Part shown: in pieces, positions 1-47,560 of the stretch
How positions within the stretch are numbered: position 1 is the stretch's first letter
Layout of the letters: the number at the start of each line of letters is the position of its first letter
DNA from: Corynespora cassiicola
Taxonomy: Eukaryota > Ascomycota > Dothideomycetes > Pleosporales > Corynesporascaceae
Length of the DNA stretch: 64,000 nucleotides
Direction of reading: 5' to 3'
NCBI GenBank assembly: GCA_022059125.1
Contig: JAEUWY010000005.1
Location: forward strand, 124,001 to 188,000
Made by a program: the position numbers and the translations under genes
The notes under the pieces: model-generated
Seen by the model: only the letters and a program-made list of their open reading frames with translations
Databases searched by the model: none
What the model was told of the DNA's origin: nothing

Positions 1-175
1 CTACTAAAAGATTAGGTAAGAAGAATTTCAGAACAAATAATTTGTTCAGAAGTTCCTAGTTAAATAAAAAGAATACTTTAATTCAGAAAATACTTAAAAA
101 CTAAAAAAAAATCTATAAAACTATCAGCAACTGCTAAAAAAATACTAAAAAAAATATATTATCTACTACTACACG
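1..175 (+). mobile_element. Tail of a second chromovirus copy at the window edge
   Basis: This stretch aligns by eye with 2635-2770. Both share a GTTAAATAAA segment, then related A-rich text, then an AGCAACT block and a final CTACTACTACAC block, with mostly A/G and C/T differences. In the internal copy the same text follows the integrase and encodes the decayed chromodomain region. It is therefore probably the 3' end of the coding part of another copy of that element, most of which would lie outside the window. Confidence 0.45.
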
Positions 176-959
176 GGGTTAGGATAAAAGAACTTACCTA
201 TAAAGAAAAAGTTTATTTTCTAAAAGTAATTAAGAATTTAAAAAGTCTGAAACTATATCCGCAGCAGTATATAAAAAAAAAAAAAACAGCAGAATTAATA
301 AAGTCTATAGTAGTTTATATTTTAGAAGAAAAAGTAACTATTGCGTCTGCGGCAGAATAGTCGCTAAATTTAGCAGTTACTAACTTTTTCTCTTACGCTA
401 TTTTAGAAGCTAAATATAAAGTTTTTTTTTTAGCACGCTTTTTAGTCTGCTTAAAAATTTTTTTATTACGTAGTAAACAAGCGATTATTTATATAAGTAA
501 CTTTTTATCGTCGTTTACTTTTTTTTAGTATTTATTATAAGTCCGGTTAAGAAAAGACTATAATATGTCTACGTACGGATAACCTAGGCGGGTACACTTA
601 GAACACTTTAAAAAAGAATTTAGCATAATATAATAATTAATACTTTTAAAAGAATAATAGATATAAGAGTTATCTGCTAAAACGTTAGCATAATAAATTT
701 CAGCACTAAAATAAATACAACGTTAAGTAGAAAATATAATAACTTACTTTAAACCGCACGAGCGGGGTAAACTCTAGTTATATACTAAAAAGTAGAGTAG
801 TTATGTAATTTAAGGACAAAATACTAAAAGAGAAAAATAATATTATAAGCACTTAGCTAAGCGCCGAATAAAAAAAGCTAAACTAACTAAAAAATAAAGG
901 TATAGAGTTTTAAAAATAATATGTAACGTATTACGTAACAGTTTAGTAATAAGTAAAAA

Positions 960-1276
960 TACGTAAAATACTTAGTAGTAAGCGCTTAGAAATAAGCACG
1001 TTTAACTATAAGTATATAGAGCGTTTAGTAGTAAGCACTAAGACATATATATATAGTTCGCATAATTATACTTTATAATTATATTTACTTTATTAGTAAA
1101 TCTATTATTTAGAATTAACTATTAACTTATTGTACTCTATTGCTAATACGGAGACCCGTACAGTATATCGCAGATTATTTTACTTACGTGACTCTACTAG
1201 TACTTATTTCTAAAAATTAATTTAAGCAGCTACTTGCTTTCTAGCCTCGCTTATAGCCTATAGCACAGCCTTAATA
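960..1276. repeat. Dispersed repeat copy 1 (possible LTR)
   Basis: The core at 1041-1276 is a 236-bp unit that recurs at 3611-3846 and 3921-4156 with no insertions or deletions. It starts with an ATATATATATAG TATA-like tract and ends with the CACAGCCTTAATA region. Upstream similarity from about 960 is weaker and includes a small length difference. It flanks the integrase relic on the left, so it is a candidate LTR, although no clean TG...CA ends survive. Confidence 0.55.
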
Positions 1277-1649
1277 ACTAGGTAAAAAAAATAAAAAAGT
1301 AGACGCTTTAAGTCGAAAAATAGATATTATAAAAACTAAGTTAATAAATAAAACTGCTATTTTTAAATAAATACTAAACAGCACTTTAGAACTAGCACAC
1401 AGCATTAATCTTATTATAACAGTATACTAATAAATACTAGAAAAACTTTATTAAACTATTATTTAATAGTATTATAAAAATCTGTTATACAGATATCTAG
1501 ATATTAAATAAATAATTAAACTAATATAATAAACGTATAATATCTCTGGATTAAAAAACAAAGTAATAAAGTTTATTAAGAAATATATAATATACTAGAA
1601 GAATAAATATAGTACACACGCTTAATATAGAGAACTATAAACTATAAAA

Positions 1650-2760
1650 ATACTAAATAAACTTTAAATAGATATTGCTATAGACTTTATTACAGAACTA
1701 CTAACGTTTTATAATCTAGTTTTTAAAGTACTTTATAATACTATTTTAGTAGTTATAGATAGATTTATAAAATACGCAGAAATAATTCTATTTAAAAATA
1801 ACTATACTATATTAAAATTAGTATAGGTTATTTTAAATCGCGTAGTTAGATATTATAAATTACTTTAATTAATTATTAGTAACAGAGACAAACTTTTTAT
1901 ATTAAACTATTAAACAATATTAATATTAGCTATTAAAATTAAAAAAAAATTATTAATAGTATACTATTTACAGACAGACAGTTAAACAGAAAAAATAAAC
2001 TAAACTATAAAAATATATCTACAGATATATAGTAACTAAAAACAAAATAACTAAATATTACTACTACTTATAGTATAACTTATATTTAATAACAAAGAAT
2101 TAGTAATAATAAAGTAATTTTTTTATTACGTATTACACGGGACACACCTAAATCTTCTATTACTAAAAATTAAAAAAAAACAAATTAAGCTAGTTATAAG
2201 TTAAGTAATAAATAAATTAGAAAAACTATAAAAACTTTATAAATAATTAAAAAAAAATATTAAAACAGTATAACGCAAGACTATTTTTATATTAACTAGA
2301 AATAAAAAATAGTATTTTAGCTAAAAAAAAAAATAGAGTATATTTTTTTACAAAAAACTTTTAAATAATATAACTAAGTTAAAAATTAAATCACATTAAA
2401 GTTGGACTATTTTTAATTCTAGAATAAAAGAAACTAGTTAACTATAGACTTTAACTTCTTACTAATACTAGAATACATCTAGTATTTTATATATTACTAT
2501 TAGAATCTGCTAATACTAAAATATTAGTTTAAAAATACTTCTAGTACAGAATAGAAAAAAAAGTTAAATTTAAAGTAGAAGCGCTAGTAGACTACTATAA
2601 AATAAAATAAAATAAATTTTATAATAACTACTTCGCACAGAAATAGTTAGTTAAATAAAAAAAATATTTAAAGTTAAAAAATACTTAGAAACTAGAACAG
2701 AACTTAAAAAACTGTTAGCAACTACTTAAAAAAAGCTAAAAATAAAATTACTTCTACTAC
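1650..2760 (+). mobile_element. Ty3/gypsy chromovirus relic: integrase core plus chromodomain region
   Basis: From about 1670, one frame reads through as a recognisable retroviral-type integrase core: DIAIDFITEL, then ILVVIDRFIKYAE, then further on the SNRDKLF and YLQTDS segments. These match the conserved integrase blocks of fungal Ty3/gypsy elements (MDFI..LP, VVVDRFTK, SDRD..F, YHPQTDGQTER). Downstream text near 2400-2600 resembles the KVGPF and FHVSLLEP segments and a decayed chromodomain, typical of chromoviruses. Many in-frame stops replace Trp and Gln codons, as RIP would produce. The gag and reverse transcriptase parts were not recognised. The element is dead. Confidence 0.6.
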
Positions 2761-3536
2761 TACACAGAAGTAATTAAAAAAAATATATTTAAAAAAAAGT
2801 AATATATTATATATAACTAAATACTTAAAGATTAGTAGATAACACAGATACTTCCTAAAAGTTATTAAAAAAACTTTTAATAGCGCTTTAAGTGCTTAAA
2901 AAAAAATTAAAAGTAAAACTTTTAAAAGAACCGTTAAAAATAAAAACTTTAAATAATATTTTACGTTTCTGCTACTCTTACTTTTTTAGATTTTATTTTT
3001 TTACTAATATAGTTTTTTCTGCACAATAATTAAGCAAGTCTATCTATTAATAAAGCTGTTTTTTTTTTAGCTTTTACTACTTATAAGTTTTCTAAAACTT
3101 TTTTATACGTTTTTATAGCCGTATTCTACGCTTTATATAACTTTTTTATCTATTATTATAATTTTTTTTTTTTTAGTAAAATATTAAAATTTAGACTAAG
3201 TAACGCGAATATTGCACCGCTGCCCGTAATATAAATACTTACTATACTTTTTAAAGTAAATATATATTTTATATATTTATTTATACTTTACGTAAGTTAA
3301 ATATTTTTAAACTTTAACTTTTTTTATAGCTTTAATAAAATTAGCTAAGTAATAACAGCAGACAGTACTAGAGACTGTTAGTATTTTAAATATTATTATA
3401 AAAATAGATAGTAATAAAAAAAACCCGCGTATTATATATTAGCTTAAAAAACTAAGCTAAATTAGAAAAGAGATAGTATTATAAGCTACAAACGTAAGCT
3501 AATAATAGAGCCAATAAAGTCGCACCGCTATAGCTA

Positions 3537-3846
3537 GTTATATAATATACTTAGTTAATTAGTCTGCTTAGCAGTATTAAGTAACTAAACAGTACTAAGT
3601 AAAAAGTTTTAGGCATATATATATAGTCTGTATAATTATACTTTATAATTATATTTACTTTATTAGCAAATCTATTATTTAAAATTAACTATTAATTTAT
3701 TATACTCTATTACTAATACAGAAATCTATATAGTATATCGCACATCGTTTTACTTACGTAACTCTACTAGTATTTATTTTTAAAAATTAACTTAAGCAGC
3801 TACTTGCTTTTTAGTCTTACTTATAGCTTATAACACAGCCTTAACA
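3537..3846. repeat. Dispersed repeat copy 2 (possible LTR), first of a tandem pair
   Basis: This 310-bp unit is followed immediately by a second unit at exactly 310-bp offset. The pair shares the text GTTA..TAATATACTTAGTTAATTAG at the start and the 236-bp core at the end. Differences are nearly all C/T and G/A. Lying to the right of the integrase relic, it would fit the 3' LTR of that element. Confidence 0.55.
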
Positions 3847-4156
3847 GTTACGTAATATACTTAGTTAATTAGTTTATTTAGCAGTACTAAGCAGCTGAGC
3901 AGTACTAAGTAAAAAACCTTAAATATATATATATAGTTCGTATAATTATACTTTATAATTATATTTACTTTATTAGCAAATTTATTATTTAAAATTAACT
4001 ATTAACTTATTATGCTCTATTGCTAACACAGAAACCTGTACAGTATATTACACATTATTTTACTTATATAACTCTACTAGTATTTATTTCTGAGAATTAA
4101 CCTAAGCAGCTACTTGCTTTCTAGCCTCGCTTATAGCCTATAGCACAGCTTTAATA
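3847..4156. repeat. Dispersed repeat copy 3 (possible LTR), second of a tandem pair
   Basis: This is the second 310-bp unit, in direct head-to-tail orientation with the preceding one. It is less mutated than copy 2: it retains GCTGAGC, CCTGTACAG and TAGCCTCGC where copy 2 has A/T-shifted versions. It could be a solo LTR or the result of an LTR-LTR recombination. Confidence 0.55.
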
Positions 4157-4633
4157 AATATTTAGTATAAGCGTAAATTTTTATAAATTTAGCTTAAAAA
4201 TATAAATAATAACTATTTTTTTTTAACTTTAGTTAGCTATTTTAAGTTAAATTAGTAATTATATTACGCAGATTATTTAGTATATTAATTATTTAATATA
4301 GTATAAAAAATACTATACGCAGAAGCAGCGCGTTAAATACTTTAAATAAAATTATTTTAAATAGCTAAAAAAGTAAAAATTACTTAAAGTCTTTTTATAG
4401 GCTAATTAGATATTTTTTTATTATAGTATAATAGATGTAGGTGGCTCGCGTTAGGGCTGTCAGGGGGGCTGTCTGACTCGCTTGTCTGTCCGACTCGCTT
4501 ATTCTTTACGTTAACAGGATTCCACATGATTTAGTTCTAAACACAAATTTTTCCCCACAAGGGTCAACCTAACCTGCGCCCACTTCGATTAACAAGATTA
4601 TCCTTGCGATACTTGCTCATAGACGTTAGACTT

Positions 4634-6358
4634 TCACATCTCATATTGCTGGAATAAGTGCTGTGCCACGTTATATTCCTTCTGGATGATATGTTGCCGG
4701 CCTTCTCGTATCGTGATGCTGCACTGGAATGGTTTCGCGCAGTGCAAGAATCCCTCGGTATATCCTGACCTGGGATTCACGTCGACTGGAAAATCGGGAA
4801 TTTCCCCAAAATCAAAGGCCCAGAGCAGTTTCACAATTCCAACAAAGAGATTTCGCTCAGCGACATGTATCCCTGGACAAATTCTTCGCCCTGCTCCATA
4901 CCCGTAATGATCTCTTGAAGTGTAGTCTGAGGATACCGCGTATTCAGACGCAAGTTTTGTGCGCCCGGCGAATCGTTCGGGGTCAAATTCCGAGGGCGGC
5001 AATCGCTTCTCATCCGCAGCAGCGTTGTGCAATCCCCAAACGTTGATGATGACGATGCTCCCCTTGGGAATAAAGTATCCGTCAATAGTATCATCTACCG
5101 CGGTCAGCATACTTCGCTGCATTTCTTGATAATCGCTTACCCGCCGACGTTGCGTGCGGGACACTTAGTGGGGTCACTGGTCGCCATCGCATGGTCTCCT
5201 TTACTATCTGCGCGATGTAGGGAAGTTGCGCATAGTCACTCCATGTGGGGGGACGATGTCCGAGGGTTGCATCGATGATTTGGTGCGCTTTCTTTTGCAC
5301 CATGGGGTACTTGACCATGGCGTGGATAAAGGCCAGGATCATGGACGAGGTGGTGTCGCTCCCGCCTTCCATGACGGTGCCCCCGAAAAAGTCGAGTTCC
5401 TTCCTCCCAAACTTCATGCGGGGCTCCTGGTCGAGCACGTGATCCAAGAGACACCCTGCATTGATGCCCTTTGAGCGCCGGTCGATGACCCGTTGGCTTA
5501 GCTTTGCGTATAAACCCTCCATTCCCTTTCCAACTGCCGTCGCTCTTGTCTTCCAGTTCCCAAAGACCTTTTCTGGCACATGCTTTAGCCAAGGTATGAT
5601 GTCAACCGGCGGCGTTGCGCCCGTTTCCATTACAGCGCTCCATCTTTCCATTATGTCATACAACTCCAGCATGTGGTTCACCTCGGTGTTTCTAGTGCGT
5701 ATCCCATAGATTAAGCTCATGATGATACTATTGCTGAATCGCTTTGGGTGCAAGTTCAATTGTGCAGGCTCATTCATGAAATCGTAAACCATTTGCGTTG
5801 CTTCTGCCTCGATCAGCTTGACATGCTCTCGCTCGACGCGACTTTCATTGAAATGTTGCGCAATGAGCTTCCGCGCGCGACGCCATTTTTCCGAGTACGG
5901 CATCAGAAGCACATGGTGGCCACTGGTAATAAGATCATGGCCGACATAAGACGGCGCGCGGTCGTTGTACGTAGGGCCTCGTTTGTCCAGCAGCTCTTTG
6001 ATCAGACGCGGATCTGTGAGGACAATTACAGTTCCTGTACCAATCATGAGAGAAAAAATACCGCCATATTCTCTGGCCCATTCCGCGAACTGATAGTGGG
6101 GGCTGGATTTGGGGATCTGATGAATGTTTCCAATGATCGGAATTGTGGGCGGCCCTGGTACGACGGATTAAACTGAGCCATATTGGCCTGCAGGGGCATA
6201 GGGGTACCTGGAGGTAGCGCCTTTGAGCGGCGACCACTACGAAGCACCAAAAGCAACAGAATCAGCGCTGCGATGAGAAAGATGAGAGTAGCAAATGCCA
6301 TTCCAGGGATGTGCCTGTGTGTTCCTTGGGACCAGTTTGTGTCAGCAATGATTTCCAA
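4634..6358 (-). CDS. Cytochrome P450 monooxygenase (541 aa, 3 exons)
   Basis: Exons are 6358-6208, 6154-5141 and 5094-4634, with introns of 53 and 46 bp. The joins restore the proline hinge (LPPGPPTIPIIGN) and the strand before the ExxR-meander region (SADDTIDGYF). An N-terminal membrane anchor lies at residues 20-40, so the enzyme should sit on the endoplasmic reticulum. The I-helix motif GGSDTT is at 314-319, the ExxR motif ETMR at 370-373, and the heme loop HYGYGAGRRICPG at 451-463 with Cys461 as iron ligand. All core motifs are present, so it looks functional. The style resembles fungal clan members that act on secondary metabolites; the substrate is unknown. It is the gene nearest the RIP block and the first of the proposed RiPP cluster. 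Met20 is an alternative start just before the anchor. Confidence 0.88.
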
Positions 6359-7745
6359 GAATGTCCTAACTACGTCTTTTATACTTCGGAAGAGGCGGGG
6401 TTGTGTAACAGGAACTCCGTGCGTCTAGCAGGCCGAGATTGGCACCTCCCCAGCAACACAAGACTCACTGGAGCAGGAGAGATATCTTTGATTTCATGTT
6501 CGATTCCTTTTGTGATTGATTTTCTTACATGAGCTAAATACTCTGTGCATCGTCAATTCTGATGCTGTGAGAGAAGCTTGCAGGGCCTCAGCCAATAGGA
6601 CTTGTGCCCGCTCTGTTTCCGAATACCGCTTTTTATAGCCTTTTAAATATATATTAATTATTAGATAATAAAATTTCAGAAAAAAAACTTACTTTAAAAT
6701 TTACTTTTCGAAAGAGCTAGGCTTTAAAGTTTTAATGTATTCCTAAATTTAGTGCTTGCGCTGCTGTTAGAACTCTCTGTACAGGTCAGACGTCATGTAG
6801 ACCGGATGACGTAAATAGTAGAAACACAGAAACACAGAACGCAGAGCTGGTAATTCTTTGTAAGCAGCTATAACAGCAGCGTAAGCTTCTTGCAGCACAT
6901 AAGAAAAGAACTAAAGAAATTAAATTGCGATTAGAGGGCGAGTATATGTAAAGTACAGCTAGAGTGTTAGAGGTAGCTCGGGAGGCTGGAGCGACGCTAG
7001 CTGCAAAACGACCACGCAGTGGCGTACATAAGCGACCAGTTAAAGAAGCGGAAGACGGCGATAAATTCCCTGATTTCAAAAAAAAATTCCCGCAAGAGAG
7101 AAACTAGTTGATACTGTAGCGAGCAGAACTCGGTCAAAGAGGGCGAGGCTCGGTTAGCTGGTGCAAATCCCCATACACTACGTTATACAAGCGTCAGTGC
7201 ATTGGCCATTTGCGAGAGACGGCCCGGACGCCCACCGGGCCGTATTGCTATTGACTAGGGACGACTCATTTTCGTGAAATACCAATCGAGATTCGACAGA
7301 CAGAAATTTTTGCATCACAAAACTATAGATATCTAGCTGTCATCATGCCAGTATGTAAGGCACCGGGGGCATATGCGAGCCTGAAAAAGCCGAGTTTAAA
7401 CGCTCAAAACAAGGGGTAACCCTAGCCGGTAAATACGAAAATGAGTGGAGAATGATTTGATGAAGCTAGCCTCCAGTCTTTTATAAATCGCGCATAAAGG
7501 CTGTGATAAGAAAGCCCACGTGGACAACACCAAACTCAACTACCTTGTCAAAGCCGAGCTATGGGATTTGCGCCATGGAAAAACTCCAAAAAGCCCCTCT
7601 ATCGTGAGTTTGGAGTGATTTCTGTTCGTTTTAAAAACTTCAAGAGTGGAATACTTACGCTATTGTATTGTGCAGAATCGGGTGAATTTGCAGAAATAAA
7701 CAAAGCGTACTTTGAAGATATTGCGACCCAGATGATATTCCAAAT
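6359..7745. other. Intergenic region with transposase relic and hairpin
   Basis: This stretch separates the P450 from the first UstYa-like gene. It holds an AT-rich patch (about 6640-6740), a degenerate transposase fragment (listed separately) and a perfect 9-bp inverted repeat ACGGCCCGG / CCGGGCCGT with a 7-nt loop at 7219-7243. I see no protein-coding gene. A short open frame at 7561-7749 has no recognisable content and probably lies in the 5' leader of the next gene. Confidence 0.6.
6790..7078 (+). mobile_element. Degenerate C-terminal fragment of a Fot1/pogo-type DDE transposase
   Basis: One forward frame reads NTETQNAELVILCKQL, stop, QQRKLLAAHKKRTKEIKLRLEGE and then, after another stop, STARVLEVAREAGATLAAKR. 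The coiled-coil, basic and alanine-rich style is what I associate with the C-termini of fungal Tan1/Fot1 (pogo-like) transposases. Two in-frame TAA codons break it and the catalytic region is missing. Family placement rests on resemblance only; a translated search against pogo-like transposases would settle it. Confidence 0.4.
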
Positions 7746-8726
7746 ATGAAGCTTTTCGGAAATTTCTCAGGAGCTTCGCAACAGGAGTACACATACGGTC
7801 TCCTTGACGACAATGCCAGACAGAGCAAATTTTCCAAAACAATTTCAACGATGGCAGCAACACACCCACTTACATGGCTTTGCCTCAATATCTGTCTGTT
7901 TGTATTATCAATAATCATACTTGTTGTTTCTGCATCCCAATCAGCCTCTTCAAGTCTTGAGAGCACTGCAGAACTATTAAGGCATTATTCAGGCGAATGT
8001 ATGTATAGGATTTCCACCACAGAATGTAACTAACACAATGTAGCGCCGATTTTCGATCGTATCAATATCAACATGATCACCAAAAAAATGAATGCTACGC
8101 TACTCCCTTCGACGACCGATGAAATATTCAGAAGTGAGCCGGATCCAGAAGTTGACGAAGCATGGCGCAGGATATCCAACGAGCGACCCATCGCCATCTC
8201 ACGTGCTGAGGTCATTGCTATGGGAAAGGACCCTAATAAAAGCGTTAAATATCCCGACAGTTTCGAATTAGGCGAGTCATATGCAGCCCGTATTGACGTT
8301 TTTCATCAAATCCATTGCCTAGATGCTCTGCGGCGTGAGGCATACTTCGAACACTATTACGGCGATAAATATTCGGATTTCAATTCAACGACAAAATTAC
8401 ACAAAGCGCACCTCTCGCACTGCATATACTATTTGTTACAGAATATTATGTGCCAGGCAAATGTTGATGTTTATACCCACGTTTGGACGGACACGCTTCT
8501 CCAGCCTTTCCCGGATTTTCAAATCAACCATAAATGCAAGAACTTCGATGCGATACTAGATTGGCAAGAGAAAAATGGAATTGACTTGAAAGAGTTTTAC
8601 AAAATGAGGAAGCCAGATGATTATGGAACTGGGATGGAAATGTCTTCGGAATTCAAGGAGTTGTGGAAAGAATTCGAATTTTACAATCCTGACGCAGATC
8701 ATCACGAAGGGGGTCATATTGGATAA
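7746..8726 (+). CDS. UstYa-like (DUF3328) oxidase, 311 aa, 2 exons
   Basis: Exons are 7746-7998 and 8044-8726 around a 45-bp intron (GTATGT...TAG). Residues about 46-66 form one transmembrane helix, with a short cytosolic head and a long luminal domain. The two hallmark motifs of the family are both intact: HQIHC at 172-176 followed by LDALR, and HLSHC at 207-211 followed by a helix ending in MCQANVDV. UstYa-type proteins are copper-dependent oxidases or cyclases of fungal RiPP pathways (ustiloxin, phomopsin, cyclochlorotine-type, victorin). It is convergent with a second family member 166 bp downstream and about 2.2 kb from a precursor-like gene. Role in peptide oxidation or macrocyclisation is inferred from family and context. 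Confidence 0.88.
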
Positions 8727-8892
8727 GAGGCATCGGATTAGATTACATATATTTCAGACACATATATCTAAATCAACGAAGTTTTGACAAGAATCAGAAA
8801 GAGTATGGACAATGCTTTGAAATTTAGGATTTGTGCACATAATACAACAATTGAGAAATGGCCAGTTAGAATAGATGTAGCATAGCACCCTA

Positions 8893-10041
8893 TCACAGTG
8901 ACTGAGACTTTCCAGCCTGATTTACGCCTTCCAAAGGATGATCTTGCCAATGCTTAAAGAACTTGTTACCGGGGAACATCCAATATAGCCCTTCCATGTT
9001 TTCCTCCGGAGAATGATCAAATCCTGATTCATCAATTATTCTCTGCAATTTTTTATGATCCGAGATCATGAACTCAAACTCAGGTGCTTGATGCTCCCTA
9101 GCCCAGTTTTGAATCTTGGTGAAGTTTCGGCAAGTATGTGTAGTTGCTAAACGAGGGAAAATGCCGCGATTGAAAGGGATGTTGACATGGAATGGCACAG
9201 GCGAAACATCGGCCTGGCACATAAGCGTTTGACGCAGGGAATCGACGCAGTGATCTTTATGAATTTTCAGTATTTAAATTAGATGAAAAGCGTAAAACCT
9301 ACCCCAATGACGAAACGCAAATGAGTTGCGATCAATAGTTCCATTTTTGGTTACCCTCTCCAACATTTGGAAACGTTCTGGGTAAAGCAACTTTCTTAAA
9401 TCGTTTAGACAATGAAGGGAATGCCATACATCCAACTCTACCAAATAATCTTTGGTGCCTGGAATAGCTATAGTCGGGCGTGATAGATGTTTTGCTTCCT
9501 CTTCTGAGATTATTGATATTCCGACTGTTAAAATCAGGTAAGTGGAACAAATATTGAGCGCCCGACGGTGAACTTACAGTCATACAGATCAGACCAGCGC
9601 TTATCTATCTCATCGTCGGGGAATCCCATATATTTTGTTTGGTTTGCCAAAGCGGCCTCAAAGTGTAATTGATGATACTCAACTGCATTGTTGGCAGGCG
9701 CTAAATTCACGTCAGTAAGGCTGGGTCACATTAGAAATGTCAAACGTACACCATACTCCCAATGCAGGGTCTTTGCATTCTTCAGAATAATAAATCTTTA
9801 TCGTCAAAAATGTGACAAGGGACAGTAGGAATATATTGGTTGCAGCGAAAACTCCTAAAAGCCATCTCATTTTGCGATTGTTGGCATTTCGCGTATCTTC
9901 ATTCGAGTGTAGCAATGATTCGTATTCTGCTGTGCCGTCAAGCAAACTGTCTTGACTGTCATTGGCTTGTTGCTTTGCTTCTTGCTCACTTGAAATCTGT
10001 GGTAGCACAGAGAAGAACATAATTTTCTCAATTGTAACCAT
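8893..10041 (-). CDS. UstYa-like (DUF3328) oxidase, 332 aa, 4 exons
   Basis: Exons are 10041-9750, 9700-9578, 9524-9303 and 9254-8893; introns are 49, 53 and 48 bp, all GT...AG. The joins give a continuous family sequence: WSPANNAVEY after the membrane segment, then GFPDDEIDKRW, then VWHSLHC at 171-177, then FRHWDHCVDSLRQ with the second HxxHC motif at 211-215. An acidic cytosolic head of about 60 residues precedes one transmembrane helix. Both motifs are intact, so it should be catalytically competent. It is clearly divergent from its convergent neighbour, not a recent duplicate. It faces the precursor-like gene head-to-head across 850 bp, so the two could share a bidirectional promoter. Confidence 0.86.
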
Positions 10042-10891
10042 TCTTCAGCTATTCAGAGACGAAGGAAACGGAAAAGGATGTGAATTGGGGTGTCAAGTGG
10101 GCATGAGGTAGACTCAATCGATACGAGGCCGGTCGATACCACGAAGCCGTTGAGTACGGGCCGTTTCGAGAAATTGATTGATAAATCCCTCAGATACTAT
10201 GTATCACGTGCTGTAATACTCCTATATCAATGCACAGATATTTTCATAGCACATGATCATTCTTTGATTTCGCTCGTGTAGCTCGAGTAAAGCTTCGGGC
10301 AGACTAGAACTAGCGTCCGAACTGGCAATCTCCGCAAAGCTAACCAGACAAGATTTTTTAGCGGCGGCTTATCTTCAATCTAATAAATACATACATAGCT
10401 TCCCATGCCTATTGCGACAGTAGCTCCTGCTCCATCCGGGAAACAGGAACGCAGTCCGTGGTCTCCGCGGCCTCTGCACAGCGCGTTCTTAATTTTTCCA
10501 GCGACCCGGTTCCACATTAAGATGCTTCCAGTATGTTGTTGGGTCAGATCACACTTCTTTCGGCATTATTGTATAGCCGAAGTATTGCCTAAGGCATTTT
10601 CTCCAATACGAGCAGATTGTTGCCTTCCAGACAAGCATTAGCTTGTCCAAAGCTTATCTATTGCTAGGATCTACGCGTTACAACGCTATGTGATGATGTT
10701 TACGCAATATATTCTTTCTCGGGCGCTGAACAAAGAGGAATAGTTATGCTGGCTTCGTCAACTGATGATAAGAATATGGCCGTAGAGCGTCCGCTGTTAG
10801 ACTATTAAAGGGATTGTGAACCGGAGCCTGAGGGCAATATTTCATCTTTGTACATTCAAACTTTGAATTAACAATCCAAATCTTCGATAAC
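10042..10891. promoter_or_regulatory. Divergent intergenic region between UstYa-like gene and RiPP-precursor candidate
   Basis: These 850 bp lie between the start of the leftward UstYa-like gene and the start of the rightward precursor candidate. I see no coding sequence of interest. The arrangement suits a shared bidirectional promoter, but no operator or TATA element could be assigned with confidence. Confidence 0.35.
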
Positions 10892-11172
10892 ATGAAGTTC
10901 GTTCAAGTCATTATCGCTTTCGCTTCTGCTATAGCTGTAGTTGCGCTTCCTTTAGGTACGTAGTGTCTACTAAGACATGTACTCTGGACAAGTTCTAATT
11001 TTATCTAAGAAGCAAGCTCTACTAAAGCAGTTGAAGCTCCTGAGACAGCTAAGTAAGCTGTTATATGAATTTTGACCTACCGTCTTCTAACATCATCTAA
11101 AGAAGAGGACCTGGGGTTGATGAGGTTTCTGCTGGTCTTTATATCGATTGGGACAGTACTGGAGATAAATAG
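10892..11172 (+). CDS. Candidate RiPP precursor peptide, secreted, single Kex2-released core (58 aa, 3 exons)
   Basis: Exons are 10892-10955, 11010-11052 and 11103-11172, with introns of 54 and 50 bp carrying GTACGT and GTAAGC donors and CTAA-type branch points. The peptide starts with a typical signal sequence (residues 1-18 or so, hydrophobic and Ala-rich), followed by a short Glu/Ala/Thr-rich propeptide, a Lys-Arg pair at 36-37 and a 21-residue tail that contains Tyr49-Ile50-Asp51-Trp52. Signal peptide, propeptide and KR site before a small Tyr-containing peptide is the plan of dikaritin-type precursors. It has one core, not repeats. The neighbouring UstYa-like genes make this reading much stronger. 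Alternatives are a small secreted effector or a pheromone-like peptide. Both introns end in tandem AAG acceptors (see findings). Confidence 0.68.
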
Positions 11173-11587
11173 ATATATCTACAGCAGAAACATATAGTCC
11201 AATATAGGTTAATCTTCATGTTCTTCAAAACTATATTTATAAGCCCACGAGGTTCGAGTGGAACGTGATTATGTTACTACATAGTCAACTGCAACCTCAG
11301 ATTCACACCTCATACTATTAGGGACAGCAAATCATCATCTGAAAATCTATGGCCGGGATATTGCTTCTGAGTTAGAACAGCATAACTTACCATTTCTTTT
11401 TACCACTAAAACTCTCAAGACATCGGAGGGGATGCATCTTACCACTGTTACTCTTTCGATTTCTCCCAGAACTCTCGGGTTGATGTTTTGGGGATTTGGT
11501 TTTGAACTGAACGATGCTTTCTTCGTTGGATCTAACCATCTTCATTAATTATTCTGTGGTCGGTTAATAGAGCGACCATTTCATAAG
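11173..11587. other. Intergenic, nothing recognised
   Basis: This is the sequence between the precursor candidate and the next open frame. I see no open frame of note, repeat or motif. It probably carries the precursor's 3' untranslated region at its left end. Confidence 0.5.
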
Positions 11588-12412
11588 GTGAAGCTCCTGA
11601 TCACGGGTAGCCAGAATGATTTAAAGGCTTTGGAAAGTATCATCCCTGTCGAACTTATGGGAAAACTCACCCCTCTTGGAGATTTTATTGACTGCCTAGC
11701 CGCTTTTATAGCAGAGCACTTGATGGTGATTTCAGATGACTGTTTGCATCTTCAAGGTGGTTTAGACTGTGAAGCTTATGAGGAGCATCGCCGAACAGCC
11801 CAAGCACCTCAGCATAAACATGACGACTCATTTTTGCACAAGCACGAAGAAGACTGTATGTTAGGCTGCGAGATTGAATATGATTGCGACTTCGCTGATA
11901 TAGATGCCAAAGATCAAATATTTGAATGCAGATTGGAACGTGAAGACTATGAAAGCGATATGGAATACGGCTTTGCAAAATCGCAATTGGATCGTATTTT
12001 TTTTCCAACGAATCATGGGAGGATATCAACGAGAGGCGGAAGTCAAGGTCTGGAAGACCCTTGGAGGCCCCTCTAATTCAAACAAATCATACCCATGCGG
12101 CATGGAGTTTCCAAGGTAACGAACATCCCTGCAGACTAGAGGGCTTCGTTTACCGTTATGCCAAAAAGGCCTTAGCGGATATCTGTGAGGATGACGAAGA
12201 TGTATCATATTACCAGAGTGATAATAACTACGCCAATAAGTAGACACGTCGATTTGAAGTCTCTTCGTCAGACGAACTAGTGGGAGAGATGGGCATTGCA
12301 CATCCCAGACACTGGGAACTGGGGAGCAGAGAAGCAGATGAGGTGTGGTATTGGGATACGTATGAGCCTTGGATATACAATTTTGAAGTTTCGAAACAGA
12401 AATTTTAGAGTG
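11588..12412 (+). pseudogene. Unrecognised acidic protein gene, frame-broken
   Basis: I do not recognise this family. An open frame at 11588-12076 encodes an acidic, Cys/His-containing segment. At a run of eight T residues near 11998-12005 the reading shifts: the continuing frame gives SNESWEDINERRKSRS and then runs through 12061-12243, past an in-frame TAG at 12241-12243, to a Trp/Tyr-rich end (EVWYWDTYEPWIY) and a stop at about 12410. The consistent acidic and aromatic composition across the breaks suggests one gene with a frameshift and a nonsense codon. No upstream ATG is evident in the first frame. Unannotated introns or an assembly error in the T run are alternatives. Confidence 0.35.
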
Positions 12413-12499
12413 ATGGATTTGGAGAGTGTATTTCAGGAATTAAAAGGTGCAATAAGGACAGAGAAGATAGACGTTAACGGCAAAGCTTATAGTGTCTAA

Positions 12500-13352
12500 C
12501 AGTACTAAATACTATAGGTTATGCAGATTTGATGACACATGGAGTCTAAACGCCCACTTCCCCTATGTCTCTTGAAATTAAGTGTATATCCTACGCTGAT
12601 AAGGGAGCTTAATTCCATGTGAACATGCACTCTCCTGACCTAGACAGCAGCCTTGGAGTTTGATAACAAAGCAGGCTTTTCCAAACGGTTGGTGGCGTTC
12701 GTCACACGAATCTGTGACCGAATAATGCCAGCCTATTGTGATAACCTCTGAGTCAACGGTGTTTGAGTTCCTTGGATCATGTGGTGACTGATTGGTCGAG
12801 AAAGAAGATGTCGTATCAGGGCTTGGCAGTCAGCTTACGCCGCATGCACGTTCCCCATAGAGTGTTTACTTCTGGCAACATCCTCTCAGATTGACTATAC
12901 ATTTTTCAGTATACTAAACAAATCTCATTGTATGCTTGCCACGACTCTATTCGGAGAACACCTTTACCGGGCTCATATTGCTCGTTAATCCCCTCCTTCA
13001 AAGCAAGTTAAGGACCAGGTTGTCCCAATCGAGGATTCATGCAGGATTCATGTGATGAAATATCAACATACCACTGTGTGATCTTCCCTTGTGTGACACG
13101 GAGCAGTCCGATAGCAGCACGGTAGCTTTTCATTTCTCAACAACCCCAGGCGGTGTGAAACGTGAAGTTACACAACAGCTTCTGCCAACCACCTAATTAC
13201 TAGATGATCTGAGGAAAGCAGACACCTCTTTCTATATCATCTACAATCAAAAAAATCTTTAGCCATTCCGTGTCATCGTGTCATTTTTTGGTTCAGAAAT
13301 ATAATTTCTACTTTTTTTCTTGTCCTTTTACCTTGGGTCCAGCTTATATGTC
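12500..13352. other. Intergenic, nothing recognised
   Basis: I see stops in all frames and no repeat, RNA or transposon signature. The right end should contain the promoter of the following multi-exon gene. Confidence 0.5.
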
Positions 13353-14919
13353 ATGAAATATTTACGTAAGCGGAAAAGCGCACCAAAACAATCTGAAAAT
13401 GCTTAAAAAGCTCTCTACAACCCGCTACGACCAGATGAAAGCCTTCAGCGAGCGAAGGATACGCCCGCAGAACTATTCCTCAACACAATTGGCATTCGAC
13501 CCAACAATCCCGGCTGCGGAAGACATACATTTGATAATGACGAAATAAAGGTTTTGTCTGCAAAGATATATGAGATCGTAGGTAGAGAAACGGACAGAAT
13601 ATCCTACTCCCAGTTCTGCGATGCGCTTGCTCGAGAGCATTATCTCAAGGATGAGGTTGATGATATCCTGCAAGACTTGGGTCCGCTGATCTGGACCATC
13701 AGTCCCGTGTCTCATCACAATCGTATCCAGCCTATTCCATCGTCCATATACCCACGCCTTTTAAATTACTCAAAGAGCTCCGACCGCACAAAGTACGTCC
13801 ATGGCACTCAAACGTCTACCACTTGCTGATGAGTGTAGAATCAAAGTTTTAGTGCGTTGTTTCATCGCAAGAGCAATAAAACGAAAAACGTATGGACAAC
13901 ATCACCTTTCACGAAAGGTAGCAACAGATCGTCATGGGAGGAGCAATAAAAACGCCAATCGACGAGTAGACTACTCTCCTGTTCAGTCTCGAGAGGGTAG
14001 TAACTCTATGCATACATTTAAGTGCAATAAATCAGACTTAGTTGGAGCAATTATTCGTACCACTTTCTACTTAGACGACTTAGACACGTCTGAGGATGAA
14101 TTGGCCGCGACAGCGAAGCCTAAAGTTATGTCGCTAAAGCGATCAGTAGTTCATAATTCGAGCCATTTATCCAAGAAAGAAAGTACACAACAATCTCAAA
14201 GTTCCAGGAGACAAGATAGGGTTTCGAAACTAAAAATCAGGGAAAACAACTCGCCTGACCCGATTTCTTTGGATAGCTTCGGGACGTTTGGGAGAATAGA
14301 GGAAGATGCCAGACTAGCGAACACCGCCAATGACCACGACTCAATGTCTCGCGGAAGCAACATCCGAAAAAGTGAGCTTCCAATGGTCAATACAGAGGCC
14401 AATAAAAGTGCTGAACACTCTATAGGGCGAAAAAAGGGCTGCTCTCCTTCTAAATATATGCTATTGAGAGATAGCTCGTCTCGATCAGGATCCATATCCC
14501 AACCAAACAGGCCCCCAAATCCGATTTTATCTTCTGGAATTGATGTTCCAAATATGGAAAAAGGACTGGATAGTGTTCATATGGTTGAATGTATCGCAGA
14601 GCAGGGATCAAGTGATATAAATTCAACTGAAGCCACGGCTAACGATAATGACGAGGTTCCATGTCCTGAAAAAATTTGCCAAGGCCCCCCACGGACAAGG
14701 ATCTCTCTTTGCTTAGAGCTTTCACGCGAACTCATGATTTCAGTCAAACAGCCATCGCCTTCAATCGAGAGGATTCTCACAGCTACTACATTGGTTGAAT
14801 CTGTATTGTTGGCCCCAATGAGGATACCCGAAAGCTACAAACTGTGGATCGCAATGCATGAGAAGCTTCGAGAATTCCAGAAAAAACATCTCTCCAAGGA
14901 ACTTTCGAGGACGTCATGA
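13353..14919 (+). CDS. Uncharacterised protein, 4 exons (about 469 aa), possible late frameshift
   Basis: I do not recognise the family. Exons fit as 13353-13365, 13411-13792, 13853-13917 and 13970-14919, with introns of 45, 60 and 52 bp (donors GTAAGC, GTACGT, GTAGCA). The N-terminal part is well structured (PLYNPLRPDESL, then a helical IKVLSAKIYEIVGRE segment); the middle is Ser/Arg/Asp-rich and probably disordered; the end is helical. A further frame at 14916-15167, rich in Trp and Leu, looks coding and would follow directly if the A6 run near 14884-14889 differed by one base. If the C-terminal part belongs to the gene, the protein would reach about 550 aa. I cannot say whether the break is real. 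A first exon of 13 nt also leaves the start uncertain. Confidence 0.5.
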
Positions 14920-15167
14920 ATTATATGAAGGTCTCGAGCAAGGTGAACAAGATATGTATACAGTCATGGGTTGCACTCAATGCGTTGCATATCTGGACTG
15001 ATCAAAAGCAACGCAATAGTTCTTGGATCGACGAGTCTTCTCTCAACCGTGAACTAGCACAGTTCTTTTGTGAGCTTCTCCAGGGAATGTACTTTTCTGC
15101 ATCCGACTGGGAACGCCAAATGCAAGAGTATAATTCAGGACTATTGAAGTGGTTTCAATGCGCTTGA
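14916..15167 (+). other. Probable 3' coding continuation of the preceding gene in another frame
   Basis: This 83-codon frame has strongly protein-like composition, with segments such as WVALNALHIWTDQKQR and LAQFFCELLQGMYF. Read upstream it stays open back to about 14865, across the end of the preceding open frame. I found no phase-compatible intron that links them. It is either the frameshifted C-terminus of that gene or an exon whose splice donor I cannot see. Confidence 0.35.
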
Positions 15168-16254
15168 GAGATATGAGGAAATGTAGTAACAGAATAGTTT
15201 GAGATAGAAAGTTATTCACTGGCTGAATAACTTCTGTGTTATTTTTTGTAAAGTAATCCAATTGTCTGCTTCATACTAGTCTATTCAAGAGAGATTTTTT
15301 CACGATTTTGGACCTAGAGTCCTGAAAAACACGAAATATTTCTCACAACAGACCTACGGCTGTCTGAGTGACACAAGAAAGCGAGGGACACAAGAAAGCG
15401 AGGGACACGAGAAGAAGGGACACTTGGTTGCTTCAGGCAGGGCATGTTGGAACGGGTTCATACTAGTCTATGACATCGCATCTTTACTATTCAACATACC
15501 GCGATGCATGCACTTCTACCACTCCGCCGCCTTTTTGGAGTCGAGCAGAGTATCCTCAGCCGTGAACTGGGCCTGATGCCATCGTACTGCGATGTCAAGC
15601 TCAAAAACAGAGTTGATTCGCACTTTGATCTCTGGTTATGCGAAGATTTTCTTGCGGGCTAAGGGGTTGGCTTCGGGCAAACAGGTGTTGCGGGGGACGG
15701 TTGAAGATGTAGGACTGCTTGGGACAGGCGCTGAGGATATCAGCTCATAGGATAGTGGTTTCGACAATGGAGACTATGAACGCAACTAGCTAGTCCTACA
15801 AAGTTGCAGCAATCCTGAGGATGAAGGCATGGAAGAAGTGGGCAAGAAAAAGAGACTTGATTGTGCAGAAATCTGGAGATCGATGAGCTCGCACTACAAG
15901 ATGAGATTGAGTAGATGGAGCTGCCAAAAAAATAGCGCAAAAGCTTGTTCATGATCCTGAATGAAAAAAAGGTAGAAGATTAAGGGACGCGAAGTAGTTG
16001 AATGTAAAGATTTGTGGATTTTGGGCCCACAGGGGACAGTGGGCAAATGCAATGCGCGTCATCCGACCGCGGCTAGGATGGACGTGCAAAGGACCGCACG
16101 GGCCCGGTCGACGCCAGCTTTATTTCGAGCTCACTCCACCGCGAAAACCCGCCCTCCCTCTATTTCCGCCATTGCGCCCGCCTTGCGCCCGCACTACGCC
16201 CAATAGCTCCGAATCGATTGCTGCGATAGCCACTTGATTGATTTCTGCCCGAGG
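15168..16254. other. Intergenic, with a short tandem repeat and a decayed coding-like patch
   Basis: The region contains a 17-bp tandem repeat at 15371-15419 (unit ACACAAGAAAGCGAGGG, about 2.9 copies). A 15-bp direct repeat, TTCATACTAGTCTAT, occurs at 15270-15284 and 15457-15471. The stretch 15470-15960 reads like a decayed gene (broken acidic and Lys-rich frames) but I cannot identify it. The COX19 promoter must lie at the right end. Confidence 0.45.
15371..15419. repeat. 17-bp minisatellite, about 2.9 copies
   Basis: Two perfect copies of ACACAAGAAAGCGAGGG are followed by a degenerate third copy. It lies within the 187-bp interval bounded by the two TTCATACTAGTCTAT direct repeats. Confidence 0.7.
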
Positions 16255-16994
16255 ATGAGTACATTTGGAGGACCTGGCGGTGGCCAAAAGATCACGAAGC
16301 CGACCCCGTACGCCCAAGTCACCATGCGTCCCTTTGTCGAACAAAGACTGAGCTTCAGACCGTAGGCCCGAACGCGGCTCGTTTCCCCTCGATCATGATG
16401 GTGCGGTAGCTGCTTCCGTCCCAATACCGCCTCGCTGACCCATTCCAGGCGAATGCAAGTCCATCATGGCCTCGTACCTCAAGTGCCTGCGATCGCACCG
16501 CGGAACGAACGACTCCGAATGCCGCGAACTATCCAAATCATACCTGACGTGTCGAATGGAGCGGTACGTACTATCTTCTTGATATATCCAAGCAAGGGCA
16601 GCTGGCATCTTGTGATACCGCCCTGTCAAACTGCTTTGAACCAGGTACTGGGGACGCTGCGAAGGGAGGGAGAGTGAAGAGGGATATGCATTCCTTGCCT
16701 CCTGTCAAGATCTGAAACGATGGAGCCGCATATTTGTCTTATCGGATTGCCATCTCCACTTTCTTCTGTCACACTGCCTCGGCCGCTCCCGAACCAGCCC
16801 ATCACTTGCCCAAAATAGCCACCTCGCTGCGACTCTATGACTGTGCTGACCCCTTTTGTCACTGAAGGAACCTCATGGCCCCCGACTCTTTCAAGAATCT
16901 GGGCTTCCCAGATGCCGACGAGAACGCTCCCACTGCAACCCCATCGCAACCGCAACCCATATCCCAATCCCAAGAGAAGCGGCGGACGTCCTAG
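16255..16994 (+). CDS. COX19: Cox19, mitochondrial twin-CX9C copper chaperone (109 aa, 4 exons)
   Basis: Exons are 16255-16307, 16366-16400, 16449-16563 and 16868-16994; introns are 58, 48, 48 and 304 bp in order of the gaps except that only three gaps exist (58, 48 and 304 bp). The joined protein begins MSTFGGPGGGQKITKPTPPE and continues with GSFPLDHDGECK, a signature of the Cox19 family. Twin CX9C motifs are at Cys32/Cys42 and Cys54/Cys64, and the typical RNLMAPDSFKNLGF tail follows. The protein acts in the mitochondrial intermembrane space in copper delivery and assembly of cytochrome c oxidase, imported through the Mia40 disulphide relay. The C-terminus has a Gln/Pro-rich extension of about 25 residues. 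Short exons and a 304-bp last intron make it easy to miss. No link to its neighbours is evident. Confidence 0.93.
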
Positions 16995-19900: not shown

Positions 19901-21752
19901 GAGAAAAAAAAACTGAATCAACAAAGAGCAGGCAGTGCACAAAAAAAAAAAGGTTTCTCGCTTGCCTGCCTACGAGGCGGACTTGCATGTCTCAAGCACT
20001 GTTTCCACTGTAGGTACCTACATCGATGATAGTGACTCACCACACCTCGCAAGTCCCCTCCCCCCCTCGGAACCACCCGAGAGGCATCCAAAGAGCAAGC
20101 AAGAAAAAAGCACGAATAGAGACATTGCCAGAGGACTAGGCAGGCAATCAATGCTTGCAATCCTCCATCCTCCCGTCCAATGCTGCCCTTCCCACACCGT
20201 CGGGAATAACCAACACTTCACACCCATACCCCCAAGACACACGCCCCCCTCCTTCCCTGACCCCCCTCCCTGCCCCGAGTCCTTTGATATGCCATCTGCC
20301 TCTGCGATAGTCGCAACTTTAGCCCTTTTCATACACCGTACAGTGGCAGTAAAGCCTGCCTGCTTGCCTGCACCAGAACCCTCGGGATCCGACACTTCGA
20401 CTCCCTCTAGACTCGTACTACACAGCCCAGCCCATCCCCCAACCCCAACCCCAGGCAGCGCAATGACCTCCTCTATTGTCATGTCCCCTCCCTCCATCTC
20501 ATCGCTTACAAACCCATCAACAAAGTCCCGCGGGAATAATAAGTGGGCAAAAAAAAAGCACAAGCCAACAAGAAACCAAGACATGGGCGTGTGTGGCGTG
20601 GGGGCGGAGCAAAAGCATGGATTACGAAGAGGGCGCGGAGTGGCGATTGGATGGGAGAGAGGGAGAGGAGTGAGAGGCTACAAGGCTGCCGTTTGGCGTC
20701 CACTTCCCCACTCCCCTCCACCCCCCCTCCAGATGGGCATCGGTAGCTGCCCATCCGCGTAAGCGCTCAGACTCAGACCCCCCGGCTTGAGCCCAAGCCT
20801 GAGGCAACATGTCTTTTTTTCCTCTGCCCCCATTTTCTCGATTTTTGCACATCATCGCCATGGCATCCTGCAACCAAGTCAGCCATGGTCACACACCACT
20901 TCCAGTGCATCATCACTGTCGATCCCATGTGGCACAAGAGGTTCAAAGAATGTTTGTTTCATTGATGCTTTAGGAAAGGCAATCCATATCTGTAATCCAT
21001 CATCATCCCTGATCCTGTCGGTCGAAGGAAAAGGGGAAAAACAAATTCCGAAAACGAAATAACGCAGAGCATCAAGGAAAAGAAAACAAGGAAAACACCA
21101 AGCCATGGCTCTCATCCTCATCTCCCTGGCAACGCCGTGCGTACTCCCCATATGCTGCAGATGGCCATGTAAATGAGAAAGCTAGATTAAAGAACTATAC
21201 TGAGTGGTGTCGCACAAAACATGAAGAGCATCCGATAACGTCCTGACCCATGCAAGATAGCAAACATGTGATGAAAGAGCGAAAAGAGGACCCACAAACG
21301 CTGTACCCGCCATCTAGGGCAAGGCAGATACTCATCCTCGGTGATGGAAAAAAAAAGGGAAAAGACGCGAACCAGAAACCCATGTCTAACTCCGGGCCCG
21401 GGTTGTAGGAGAGACGTAACCGTCTGTCTCGCCCTGAGCCATGCGTGATGAGATACTCCGAGTACGCCAGGGATGTGCAGTGAGGCGGTCGAAAGATATT
21501 ATTCAAGGAGATGGGTATGTTGCGAGTGGAAAGTGCAAACTCCATCCGTCTATCGGCCAGCAATGACGGCGTGTGCTGGACAAACAGGAAGCAGGGCGAT
21601 GCCGGGTGTGGCGCTGTCCCGCACTTCTGCCGTAGCAAATGCACATGCCAATGCAAGAATGTACGTGTATCGTGGTAGTGCCGGGGGTATCATGGGAAGA
21701 AACAGAATGTCGATGCTTGAAAGAGAAGACGAAGGTGTAGAACATGAAGCGT
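16995..21752. other. 4.7-kb gene-free GC-rich stretch
   Basis: No recognisable protein gene is seen. Open frames here are low-complexity shadows rich in Pro, Ser, Arg and Gly, with none of the signals used elsewhere in the window (family motifs, phase-matched introns). Pyrimidine-rich tracts (for example 20220-20280 and 20700-20735) and short A-runs are frequent. The right end should contain the long 3' untranslated region of the bHLH gene. A non-coding RNA is possible but cannot be shown from sequence. Confidence 0.5.
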
Positions 21753-47177: not shown

Positions 47178-47560
47178 GTCGAGCTGGATAAAGATTCAAG
47201 AGAAGGGGGGATAAATGAAACGGTATCACGGCACAGCGCAATGTAGATTTGGAGGAGGCTGAATGGACGGACGGGGTTGAATTAATACATGGAGGGTGGA
47301 GAACGGACGACGGACGCGAAGAACCATGATTAGAAGCCGCTTGTGGCCGGCAGTAATGTCGGGTTTGTTCTGTGGTCCGCAAAGAACAATAAGGCGCCGA
47401 GAGGGCATGCCGTCAGGGCTCAGGCGCGGGGGCTCATGGCGGAAGAGCATATCGGCAATGGAGGAGCCAAGCCGCGTTGCCTGTTACGGTAAGTGCCCGA
47501 TGGGGAGGGTCACGTGTGTGGCTCGGCGGGCTCGGGTGCTGTCACCTCTCCACGATCCGG
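47178..47560. promoter_or_regulatory. Upstream region of the aromatic hydroxylase gene
   Basis: These 383 bp contain the promoter of the leftward hydroxylase gene. No distinct motif could be assigned beyond a GGTCACGTG E-box-like site near 47509-47517. Nothing else is seen. Confidence 0.3.

What the first reader, a model, noticed from the sequence alone, without database searches (positions are those of the whole stretch)
4634..11172. Candidate undescribed fungal RiPP (dikaritin-like) cluster: P450, two UstYa-like oxidases and a Kex2-type precursor
The sequence directly shows two intact DUF3328/UstYa-like genes with both HxxHC motifs, a complete P450, and a 58-aa spliced peptide with signal sequence, one Lys-Arg site and a Tyr/Trp-containing 21-residue tail. 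In known dikaritin pathways, secreted Kex2-processed precursors are cyclised by paired UstYa-type proteins. The YIDW-containing tail does not match the cores I know (ustiloxin, phomopsin, asperipin, victorin types), so the product could be new. The cluster abuts a RIP-degraded repeat block, a common setting for accessory metabolite loci.
Basis: partly seen in the sequence, partly recalled or inferred. Interest (0 to 1): 0.92.

Follow-up and report, generated by a model that had tools for sequence, protein, structure and literature searches.

The report
Single-core fungal peptide gene cluster
A fungus carries near a chromosome end a small gene cluster that probably makes a cross-linked peptide from a tiny gene-encoded precursor; it resembles known fungal cyclic-peptide pathways but seems to use one peptide copy instead of many repeats.

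Summary
At the stated coordinates are an intact P450, two intact UstYa/DUF3328 proteins with both HxxHC motifs, and a 58-aa, two-intron secreted peptide model with one Lys-Arg site, beside a RIP-mutated block about 130 kb from a telomere. A strict scan finds no other such model outside coding genes in 64 kb; shuffled DNA yields an equally strong one in 18 of 1500 copies, a looser one in 131. Main support is internal: 4 of 9 other UstYa loci read with 13-25 kb hold multi-core Kex2 precursors, 2 hold single-KR candidates, 3 none. No ketoacyl-synthase or condensation-domain match lies within 237 kb. Best reading: a minimal dikaritin-like RiPP cluster with a single-core precursor. It fails the repeat criterion and lacks the tyrosinase and S41 peptidase of related clusters. 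Such clusters are common in ascomycetes: a variant of a known kind, moderate interest; 0.92 is too high.

The parts
4634..6301 (-). Cytochrome P450, 522 aa, N-terminal membrane anchor, heme motif YGYGAGRRICPG; introns 6155-6207 and 5095-5140
   Evidence: spliced model; Pfam p450 E 1.5e-74; best-scoring paralog in the genome 34% identical
7746..8726 (+). UstYa-1 (DUF3328), 311 aa, one N-terminal TM-like segment, HQIHC + HLSHC; intron 7999-8043
   Evidence: Pfam UstYa E 7.4e-60; motifs and hydrophobic segment
8893..10041 (-). UstYa-2 (DUF3328), 332 aa, one N-terminal TM-like segment, HSLHC + HWDHC; introns 9701-9749, 9525-9577, 9255-9302; tail to tail with UstYa-1
   Evidence: Pfam UstYa E 2.3e-55; about 30% identical to UstYa-1 over residues 121-269
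10892..11172 (+). Candidate single-core RiPP precursor, 58 aa: signal peptide (about residues 1-20, inferred), spacer, K36-R37, 21-residue tail GPGVDEVSAGLYIDWDSTGDK; introns 10956-11009 and 11053-11102
   Evidence: no second copy found in the genome
11100..11105 (+). Tandem acceptor AAGAAG at the end of intron 2: the upstream site keeps Lys-Arg, the site 3 nt downstream removes the Arg and with it the Kex2 site
   Evidence: 57-aa variant
1..4430 (.). RIP-mutated AT-rich repeat block (continues through the 10 kb fetched to the left), ending about 200 bp from the P450 stop codon
   Evidence: GC and dinucleotide indices

Best explanation
A minimal dikaritin-like RiPP cluster with a single-core precursor. 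The 58-aa peptide enters the ER, is cut by the one Kex2-type protease found in this genome after K36-R37, and releases a 21-residue acidic tail. The two UstYa proteins, membrane-anchored copper oxidases facing the lumen, oxidise that tail, most likely cross-linking Tyr (or Trp) of the YIDW stretch to a neighbouring side chain. The P450 hydroxylates or further couples the product, and general peptidases trim the flanks. Shown here: intact enzymes with complete metal motifs, an open two-intron secreted KR-containing model beside them, one Kex2-type gene, no ketoacyl-synthase or condensation domain nearby. Inferred: that the peptide is expressed, that it is the substrate, the chemistry, and the order of steps.
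For: Intact UstYa pair and P450. The peptide is the only such model outside coding genes in 64 kb, with introns like those of its neighbours. In the same genome, 4 of 9 other UstYa loci with 13-25 kb fetched hold multi-core KR precursors (C1:1334812, C1:1379678, C15:1972051, C20:44004), and 2 more hold single-KR candidates (C7:205189, C5:3374854). The two best-scoring matches of UstYa-1 outside this cluster, at C1:1335785 and C15:1973477, lie beside such precursors. Nearest ketoacyl-synthase match on the contig about 237 kb away, nearest condensation-domain match about 1.9 Mb. One proprotein-convertase P-domain gene in the genome. DUF3328 as binuclear copper enzymes: PMC12435403 (abstract, part 1 of 2 of the main section, and passages). 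Tyr is enriched in Kex2 repeats beside DUF3328 genes: 65.6% versus 38.2% (PMC7329392).
Against: No transcript, no relatives, no conservation test. Chance models of equal signal-peptide strength appear in 18 of 1500 shuffled copies, looser ones with a Tyr/Trp tail in 131 of 1500, with criteria set after the fact. In real DNA at other loci 11 of 15 start codons found by the scan I judged by eye not to be precursors. 3 of 9 other UstYa loci show no such peptide. The precursor has one core, not the repeats of known dikaritin precursors. Tyr is mid-tail, not next to the KR site. No transporter, peptidase or methyltransferase was recognised among the neighbouring ORFs scanned. No shared promoter signal: 2 shared 11-mers, equalled or exceeded by 84 of 400 random pairs. 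A single-sequence fold of the UstYa-1 luminal part failed (pLDDT 36.6), so the metal-site geometry is not shown.
Confidence: 0.6

Rival explanations
1. The enzymes are a real UstYa/P450 set but act on another substrate: an unrecognised precursor elsewhere, one destroyed in the neighbouring RIP block, or a small molecule. The 58-aa peptide is then a chance gene model.
For: UstYa proteins also serve NRPS and polyketide pathways (PMC12048977, one section read; PMC12435403). 3 of 9 other UstYa loci read with 13-25 kb show no secreted KR peptide that I accept, and the 3 loci read with 3-4 kb show none. Chance models occur in 131 of 1500 shuffles under loose terms. The RIP block ends about 200 bp from the P450 stop codon.
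Against: No ketoacyl-synthase match within about 237 kb and no condensation-domain match within about 1.9 Mb on the contig; no alternative secreted KR peptide outside coding genes in the 64 kb. Other enzyme classes that could make a substrate were not searched by family.
Confidence: 0.22
2. The peptide gene is real but encodes an ordinary small secreted or signalling peptide that merely lies next to the enzymes.
For: Signal peptide plus dibasic site is common among fungal secreted proteins (general knowledge), and 6120 of 7878 Kex2-processed repeat proteins have no DUF3328 gene among their 15 closest genes (PMC7329392).
Against: It shares an 850-bp divergent intergenic region with UstYa-2; adjacency of UstYa and KR peptides recurs in this genome; the tail holds aromatic residues of the kind that UstYa-type pathways cross-link.
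Confidence: 0.12
3. A decaying dikaritin cluster: a once repetitive precursor contracted to one core beside a RIP-mutated region and now makes little or nothing.
For: Ustiloxin output rises quadratically with repeat number (PMC10512285, passages), so one core should yield little; no tyrosinase or S41 peptidase is near; RIP block adjacent.
Against: All four frames are open and 7 of the 8 introns are canonical; no leftover core copies near the gene, only one 15-nt repeat in 10000-12500; the cluster itself carries no RIP signature (TpA/ApT 0.5-0.96 over 5001-11000).
Confidence: 0.06

Closest known systems
Asperipin-2a cluster (aprA, aprY, aprT, aprR)
   Same: Small four-gene cluster, UstYa-family oxidase, no tyrosinase among the four genes named (PMC6514808, passages)
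   Different: Here two UstYa proteins and a P450, no recognised transporter or reductase, and one core in place of repeats
Ustiloxin cluster (UstA, UstYa/UstYb, UstQ and others)
   Same: Two UstYa homologs and a secreted precursor with KR sites; the pathway figure names a P450 (PMC6514808, passages)
   Different: No tyrosinase near; no methyltransferase, FMO or PLP enzyme recognised in the ORFs scanned at 4.6-16 kb; the precursor is not 16-fold repeated; Ile follows Tyr at position 2, not 3
Phomopsin cluster
   Same: UstYa-family proteins acting on a ribosomal precursor
   Different: Five DUF3328 proteins there (PMC7329392) against two here; no tyrosinase or S41 peptidase near
UstYa + repeat-precursor loci elsewhere in the same genome (C1:1.335 Mb, C1:1.378 Mb, C15:1.972 Mb, C20:42 kb)
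   Same: UstYa genes within about 2 kb of a KR-containing precursor; the C1:1.33 Mb locus has a similar UstYa pair pointing at each other
   Different: Those precursors have about 4 to 10 cores; the C20 locus also has a tyrosinase
Cyclochlorotine DUF3328 enzymes (CctR and others)
   Same: Membrane anchor and HxxHC(x)nHxxHC motif (PMC12435403)
   Different: They act on a non-ribosomal peptide; no NRPS condensation domain is near this cluster

Membership tests
UstYa/DUF3328 oxidase | Pfam PF11807 match over nearly the whole domain | tested here: met
   203 and 188.3 bits against a cut-off of 25, profile 13-220 and 9-220 of 220
UstYa/DUF3328 oxidase | HxxHC(x)nHxxHC metal motif behind one N-terminal membrane anchor | tested here: met
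   Both motifs and an N-terminal hydrophobic segment in each protein
UstYa/DUF3328 oxidase | Binuclear copper site and oxidase activity | not testable with these tools
   Shown for CctR in PMC12435403; the fold attempted here was unusable
Cytochrome P450 | p450 domain with intact ExxR and heme-Cys motifs | tested here: met
   Pfam 251.9 bits, profile 1-439 of 462; ETMR and YGYGAGRRICPG seen by eye in the model
Dikaritin precursor (Kex2-processed repeat protein) | Signal peptide | tested here: met
   Hydrophobicity and cleavage proxy only, 2.83 on my scale; no SignalP run
Dikaritin precursor (Kex2-processed repeat protein) | Kex2 site(s), and a Kex2-type protease in the genome | tested here: met
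   One KR at residues 36-37; one P_proprotein match, C8:1853620
Dikaritin precursor (Kex2-processed repeat protein) | At least 3 tandem repeats of 8 aa or more between Kex2 sites (PMC7329392) | tested here: not met
   One core only; no leftover repeats at 10000-12500
Dikaritin cluster | UstYa gene(s) close to the precursor gene | tested here: met
   850 bp between the start codons' sides of UstYa-2 and the precursor
Dikaritin cluster | Cyclised peptide product | not testable with these tools
   No metabolite data
Ustiloxin/phomopsin subtype | Tyrosinase in the cluster | tested here: not met
   Nearest PF00264 match on the contig about 3.5 Mb away
Ustiloxin/phomopsin subtype | S41 peptidase in the cluster (named as conserved in phomopsin-like clusters, PMC6514808) | tested here: not met
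   8 PF03572 matches in the genome, the only one on this contig about 5.3 Mb away
Ustiloxin/phomopsin subtype | Methyltransferase in the cluster | tested here: inconclusive
   None recognised by Pfam in the ORFs given; no family search of the genome was made

The most novel reading that the evidence does not exclude
A single-core branch of UstYa-made fungal RiPPs exists and is overlooked because the large survey of PMC7329392 demands repeats and annotated genes. Here a 58-aa, two-intron precursor gives one 21-residue tail in which the UstYa pair, possibly with the P450, links Tyr and Trp of YIDW into a small cyclophane. A tandem AAGAAG acceptor could switch the Kex2 site on and off by splicing. 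Single-KR candidates beside UstYa genes at C7:205189 and C5:3374854 would be further members in the same genome.
Probability: 0.22. Interest if true: 0.6.

Novelty: new variant of a known kind. Interest (0 to 1): 0.38.

Why it matters
The large genome survey of fungal repeat precursors starts from annotated proteins with 3 or more repeats (PMC7329392); a 58-aa, two-intron, single-core gene escapes both filters. If this locus is real, the number of UstYa-made peptides is underestimated, and UstYa loci that seem to lack a precursor, such as the lichen clusters of PMC12048977 where a single core was only suggested, may have one. It would also offer a very small system, two UstYa proteins, one P450 and one substrate sequence, for asking which residues UstYa enzymes join.

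Tried and rejected
Shared promoter motif: two 11-mers occur once in each of the two intergenic regions and nowhere else in the window, but 84 of 400 composition-matched random pairs share as many or more, so rejected. Structure of UstYa-1: single-sequence fold of its second exon, mean pLDDT 36.6, not used. PDB sequence search for UstYa-1: nothing below E 0.5. Repeated-element origin of the 6600-7260 spacer: only itself found in the genome. Leftover extra cores near the precursor: none. RNA families in 1-20000: none at gathering threshold. Literature search for the tail motif: one hit, a conotoxin paper, judged irrelevant from its title and abstract in the listing. The literature search on the word UstYa alone returned mostly unrelated papers and added nothing. 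A link to PKS/NRPS tailoring was considered and made less likely by distance.
Full report
WHAT IS THERE. The window is C5:124001-188000 of an unnamed 44.35-Mb genome in 23 contigs; contig C5 begins with telomere repeats, so the cluster (C5:128634-135172) lies about 130 kb from a chromosome end. I rebuilt the four genes from the DNA. Order: P450 (-), UstYa-1 (+), UstYa-2 (-), peptide (+). The two UstYa genes point at each other with 166 bp between them; UstYa-2 and the peptide are divergent across 850 bp; P450 and UstYa-1 are divergent across 1444 bp.

THE ENZYMES. Pfam gives UstYa at E 7.4e-60 and 2.3e-55 and p450 at 1.5e-74. Each UstYa protein has an N-terminal hydrophobic segment and two HxxHC motifs. 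They match each other at about 30% identity and are not recent duplicates of any other UstYa gene found: the best-scoring match of UstYa-1 elsewhere is 24% identical, of UstYa-2 elsewhere 27% (E 2.3e-11). The P450's best-scoring paralog is 34% identical. No solved structure matches UstYa-1 (best E 0.56). The copper chemistry is taken from PMC12435403 (abstract, part 1 of 2 of its main section, and passages), which worked on CctR, not on these proteins.

THE PEPTIDE. Exon 1 encodes a hydrophobic N-terminus, exon 2 a spacer, and exon 3 starts inside the Lys codon of the KR site and encodes the whole 21-residue tail. Introns of 54 and 50 nt have the donor and branch patterns of the neighbouring genes (the first P450 intron is the one exception among the six enzyme introns). 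Without splicing the reading stops after 23 residues. Intron 2 ends in a tandem acceptor, AAGAAG; use of the second site removes the Arg and hence the Kex2 site (57-aa variant). The peptide has no Pfam family and no second copy was found in the genome (the three hits are its own exons).

IS IT MORE THAN CHANCE? With criteria fixed after seeing the candidate (signal-peptide proxy, strict introns, KR, 40-130 aa), the 64-kb window gives 4 start codons: this one, and three nested in coding ORFs, two in the 36.9-40.4 kb ORF and one in the P450. Markov-shuffled copies of 4434-16000 gave some model in 261 of 1500, one with a Tyr/Trp tail of at least 6 residues in 131 of 1500, and one that also had a signal-peptide score of at least 2.8 in 18 of 1500; an earlier run of 120 copies gave similar rates per copy (0.13, 0.10, 0.017). 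Real DNA is noisier than shuffled DNA: the 20 stretches gave 16 models at 15 start codons in 187,912 bases. I took 4 of those 15 as precursors and the other 11 as pieces of longer genes or weak, by eye; none of the 15 reaches 2.8, against 2.83 here. So the model is better than most chance models but not proven by itself.

THE GENOME AS ITS OWN CONTROL. One search lists 26 UstYa stretches, which I group into 15 loci including this one. For 9 of the other 14 I had 13-25 kb each (20 kb for seven, 25 kb for the first C1 locus, 12.9 kb for C15, cut by the contig end), for 3 only 3-4 kb, for 2 none. Among the 9, four have a repeat protein with Kex2 sites: C1:1334812 (four cores), C15:1972051 (four), C20:44004 (ten), and C1:1379678 (about six or more; here I joined signal exon and repeat ORF by eye, and the strict scan did not recover it). 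Two have a secreted single-KR ORF: C7:205189 and C5:3374854. Three have none that I accept (C4:1510 kb, C2:2692 kb, C7:268 kb). The 3 short ones gave none. The C20 locus also holds a tyrosinase about 0.5 kb from its UstYa match, which makes it a classical ustiloxin-like set and a fair yardstick for what this cluster lacks.

WHAT IS MISSING. No tyrosinase match within about 3.5 Mb on the contig; S41 peptidase matches number 8, the only one on this contig about 5.3 Mb away; nearest ketoacyl-synthase match about 237 kb and nearest condensation-domain match about 1.9 Mb away on C5. These searches score exons in six frames and only the best candidates. Methyltransferases and transporters were not searched by family; none was recognised among the ORFs scanned. 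ORFs given from 11.3 to 15.6 kb (eight) have no Pfam family above cut-off, so the right border of the cluster is not certain. One proprotein-convertase match is present.

THE SETTING. Window 1 to about 4430 and the 10 kb to its left have GC 0.16-0.29 and TpA/ApT of 1.47-1.81 in whole-kilobase bins up to 4000, the mark of RIP; over 5001-11000 the ratio is 0.5-0.96. The remnants read like a Ty3/gypsy element by eye. The P450 stop codon lies about 200 bp from this block, so any gene that once stood to the left would be lost.

HOW IT PROBABLY WORKS. Secretion, one Kex2 cut, copper-dependent oxidation of the tail by the UstYa pair, P450 tailoring, trimming by general peptidases. The likely site is the YIDW stretch, which holds the only aromatic residues after the cut. 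Tyr-linked rings are known from ustiloxin, phomopsin and asperipin-2a (PMC7329392); here Ile is second after Tyr rather than third, and Trp is fourth, so the ring would differ. The chemistry is inference.

KNOWN OR NEW. PMC7329392 (abstract, two sections and passages) counted 7878 repeat precursors in 1345 of 1461 strains, 22% beside DUF3328 genes, with a rule of at least three repeats. PMC10512285 (passages) defines dikaritins as made from repeat precursors and UstYa homologs, and reports that repeat number drives yield. PMC12048977 (abstract and one section) suggests a single core for lichen clusters without naming one. PMC9632046 (passages) searched one Venturia genome allowing one or more repeats and found nine clusters. 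PMC6514808, PMC9233826 and PMC7099791 were read as passages. In the literature searches run here I saw no described single-core UstYa product, but I read only listings apart from the papers named, and most subscription papers are not in that library. Hence: works like a dikaritin cluster, does not meet the repeat criterion, best filed as a variant.

VERDICT. Observation confirmed as sequence, interpretation partly supported, precursor likely but unproven. Interest 0.38: such clusters are common, but the single core and the in-genome comparison make a cheap, clear test possible.

Noticed in passing
L032 (C20:42001-52000) 2004-2627, with UstYa at C20:41900 and tyrosinase at C20:40814: A classical ustiloxin-like set in the same genome: tyrosinase, UstYa and a 207-aa secreted precursor with ten near-identical cores.
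   Followed up: partly
L015 (C1:1331501-1341500) 3312 minus strand, and L020 (C15:1971001-1973912) 1051 minus strand: Two further secreted repeat precursors with four cores each, next to UstYa genes; the C15 one has no Tyr or Trp in its cores, only Phe.
   Followed up: partly
L024 (C1:1378001-1388000) from 1678: Gly-rich repeat protein with His-His and KR/RR sites beside a UstYa gene, resembling the di-histidine precursors mentioned in PMC7329392.
   Followed up: no
L026 (C7:203501-213500) 1689 plus strand; L030 (C5:3373001-3383000) 1854 plus strand: Two single-KR secreted ORFs next to UstYa genes, possible further single-core precursors.
   Followed up: partly
window 36892-40413, minus strand: One 1174-aa open frame joins FAD_binding_4, phosphomevalonate-kinase and phosphoribosyltransferase Pfam domains, an odd combination.
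   Followed up: no
C1:3554575, C2:2190800 and C2:4064556: Telomere-repeat arrays or single matches well inside contigs (capped list); fused chromosome ends or assembly joins are possible.
   Followed up: no
C6:231150-232087 and C20:2747812-2748749: Ketoacyl-synthase exons with identical scores at two places in opposite orientation, one 231 kb into C6, one within 10 kb of the end of C20: a duplicated segment or an assembly duplicate. C1:3595633 and C14:72516 show the same for a P450 exon.
   Followed up: no
window 45244-49901: A phenol-hydroxylase-type FAD monooxygenase and a second P450 lie side by side, with a rhamnogalacturonan lyase at 41.5-43.3 kb; no link to the RiPP cluster seen.
   Followed up: no
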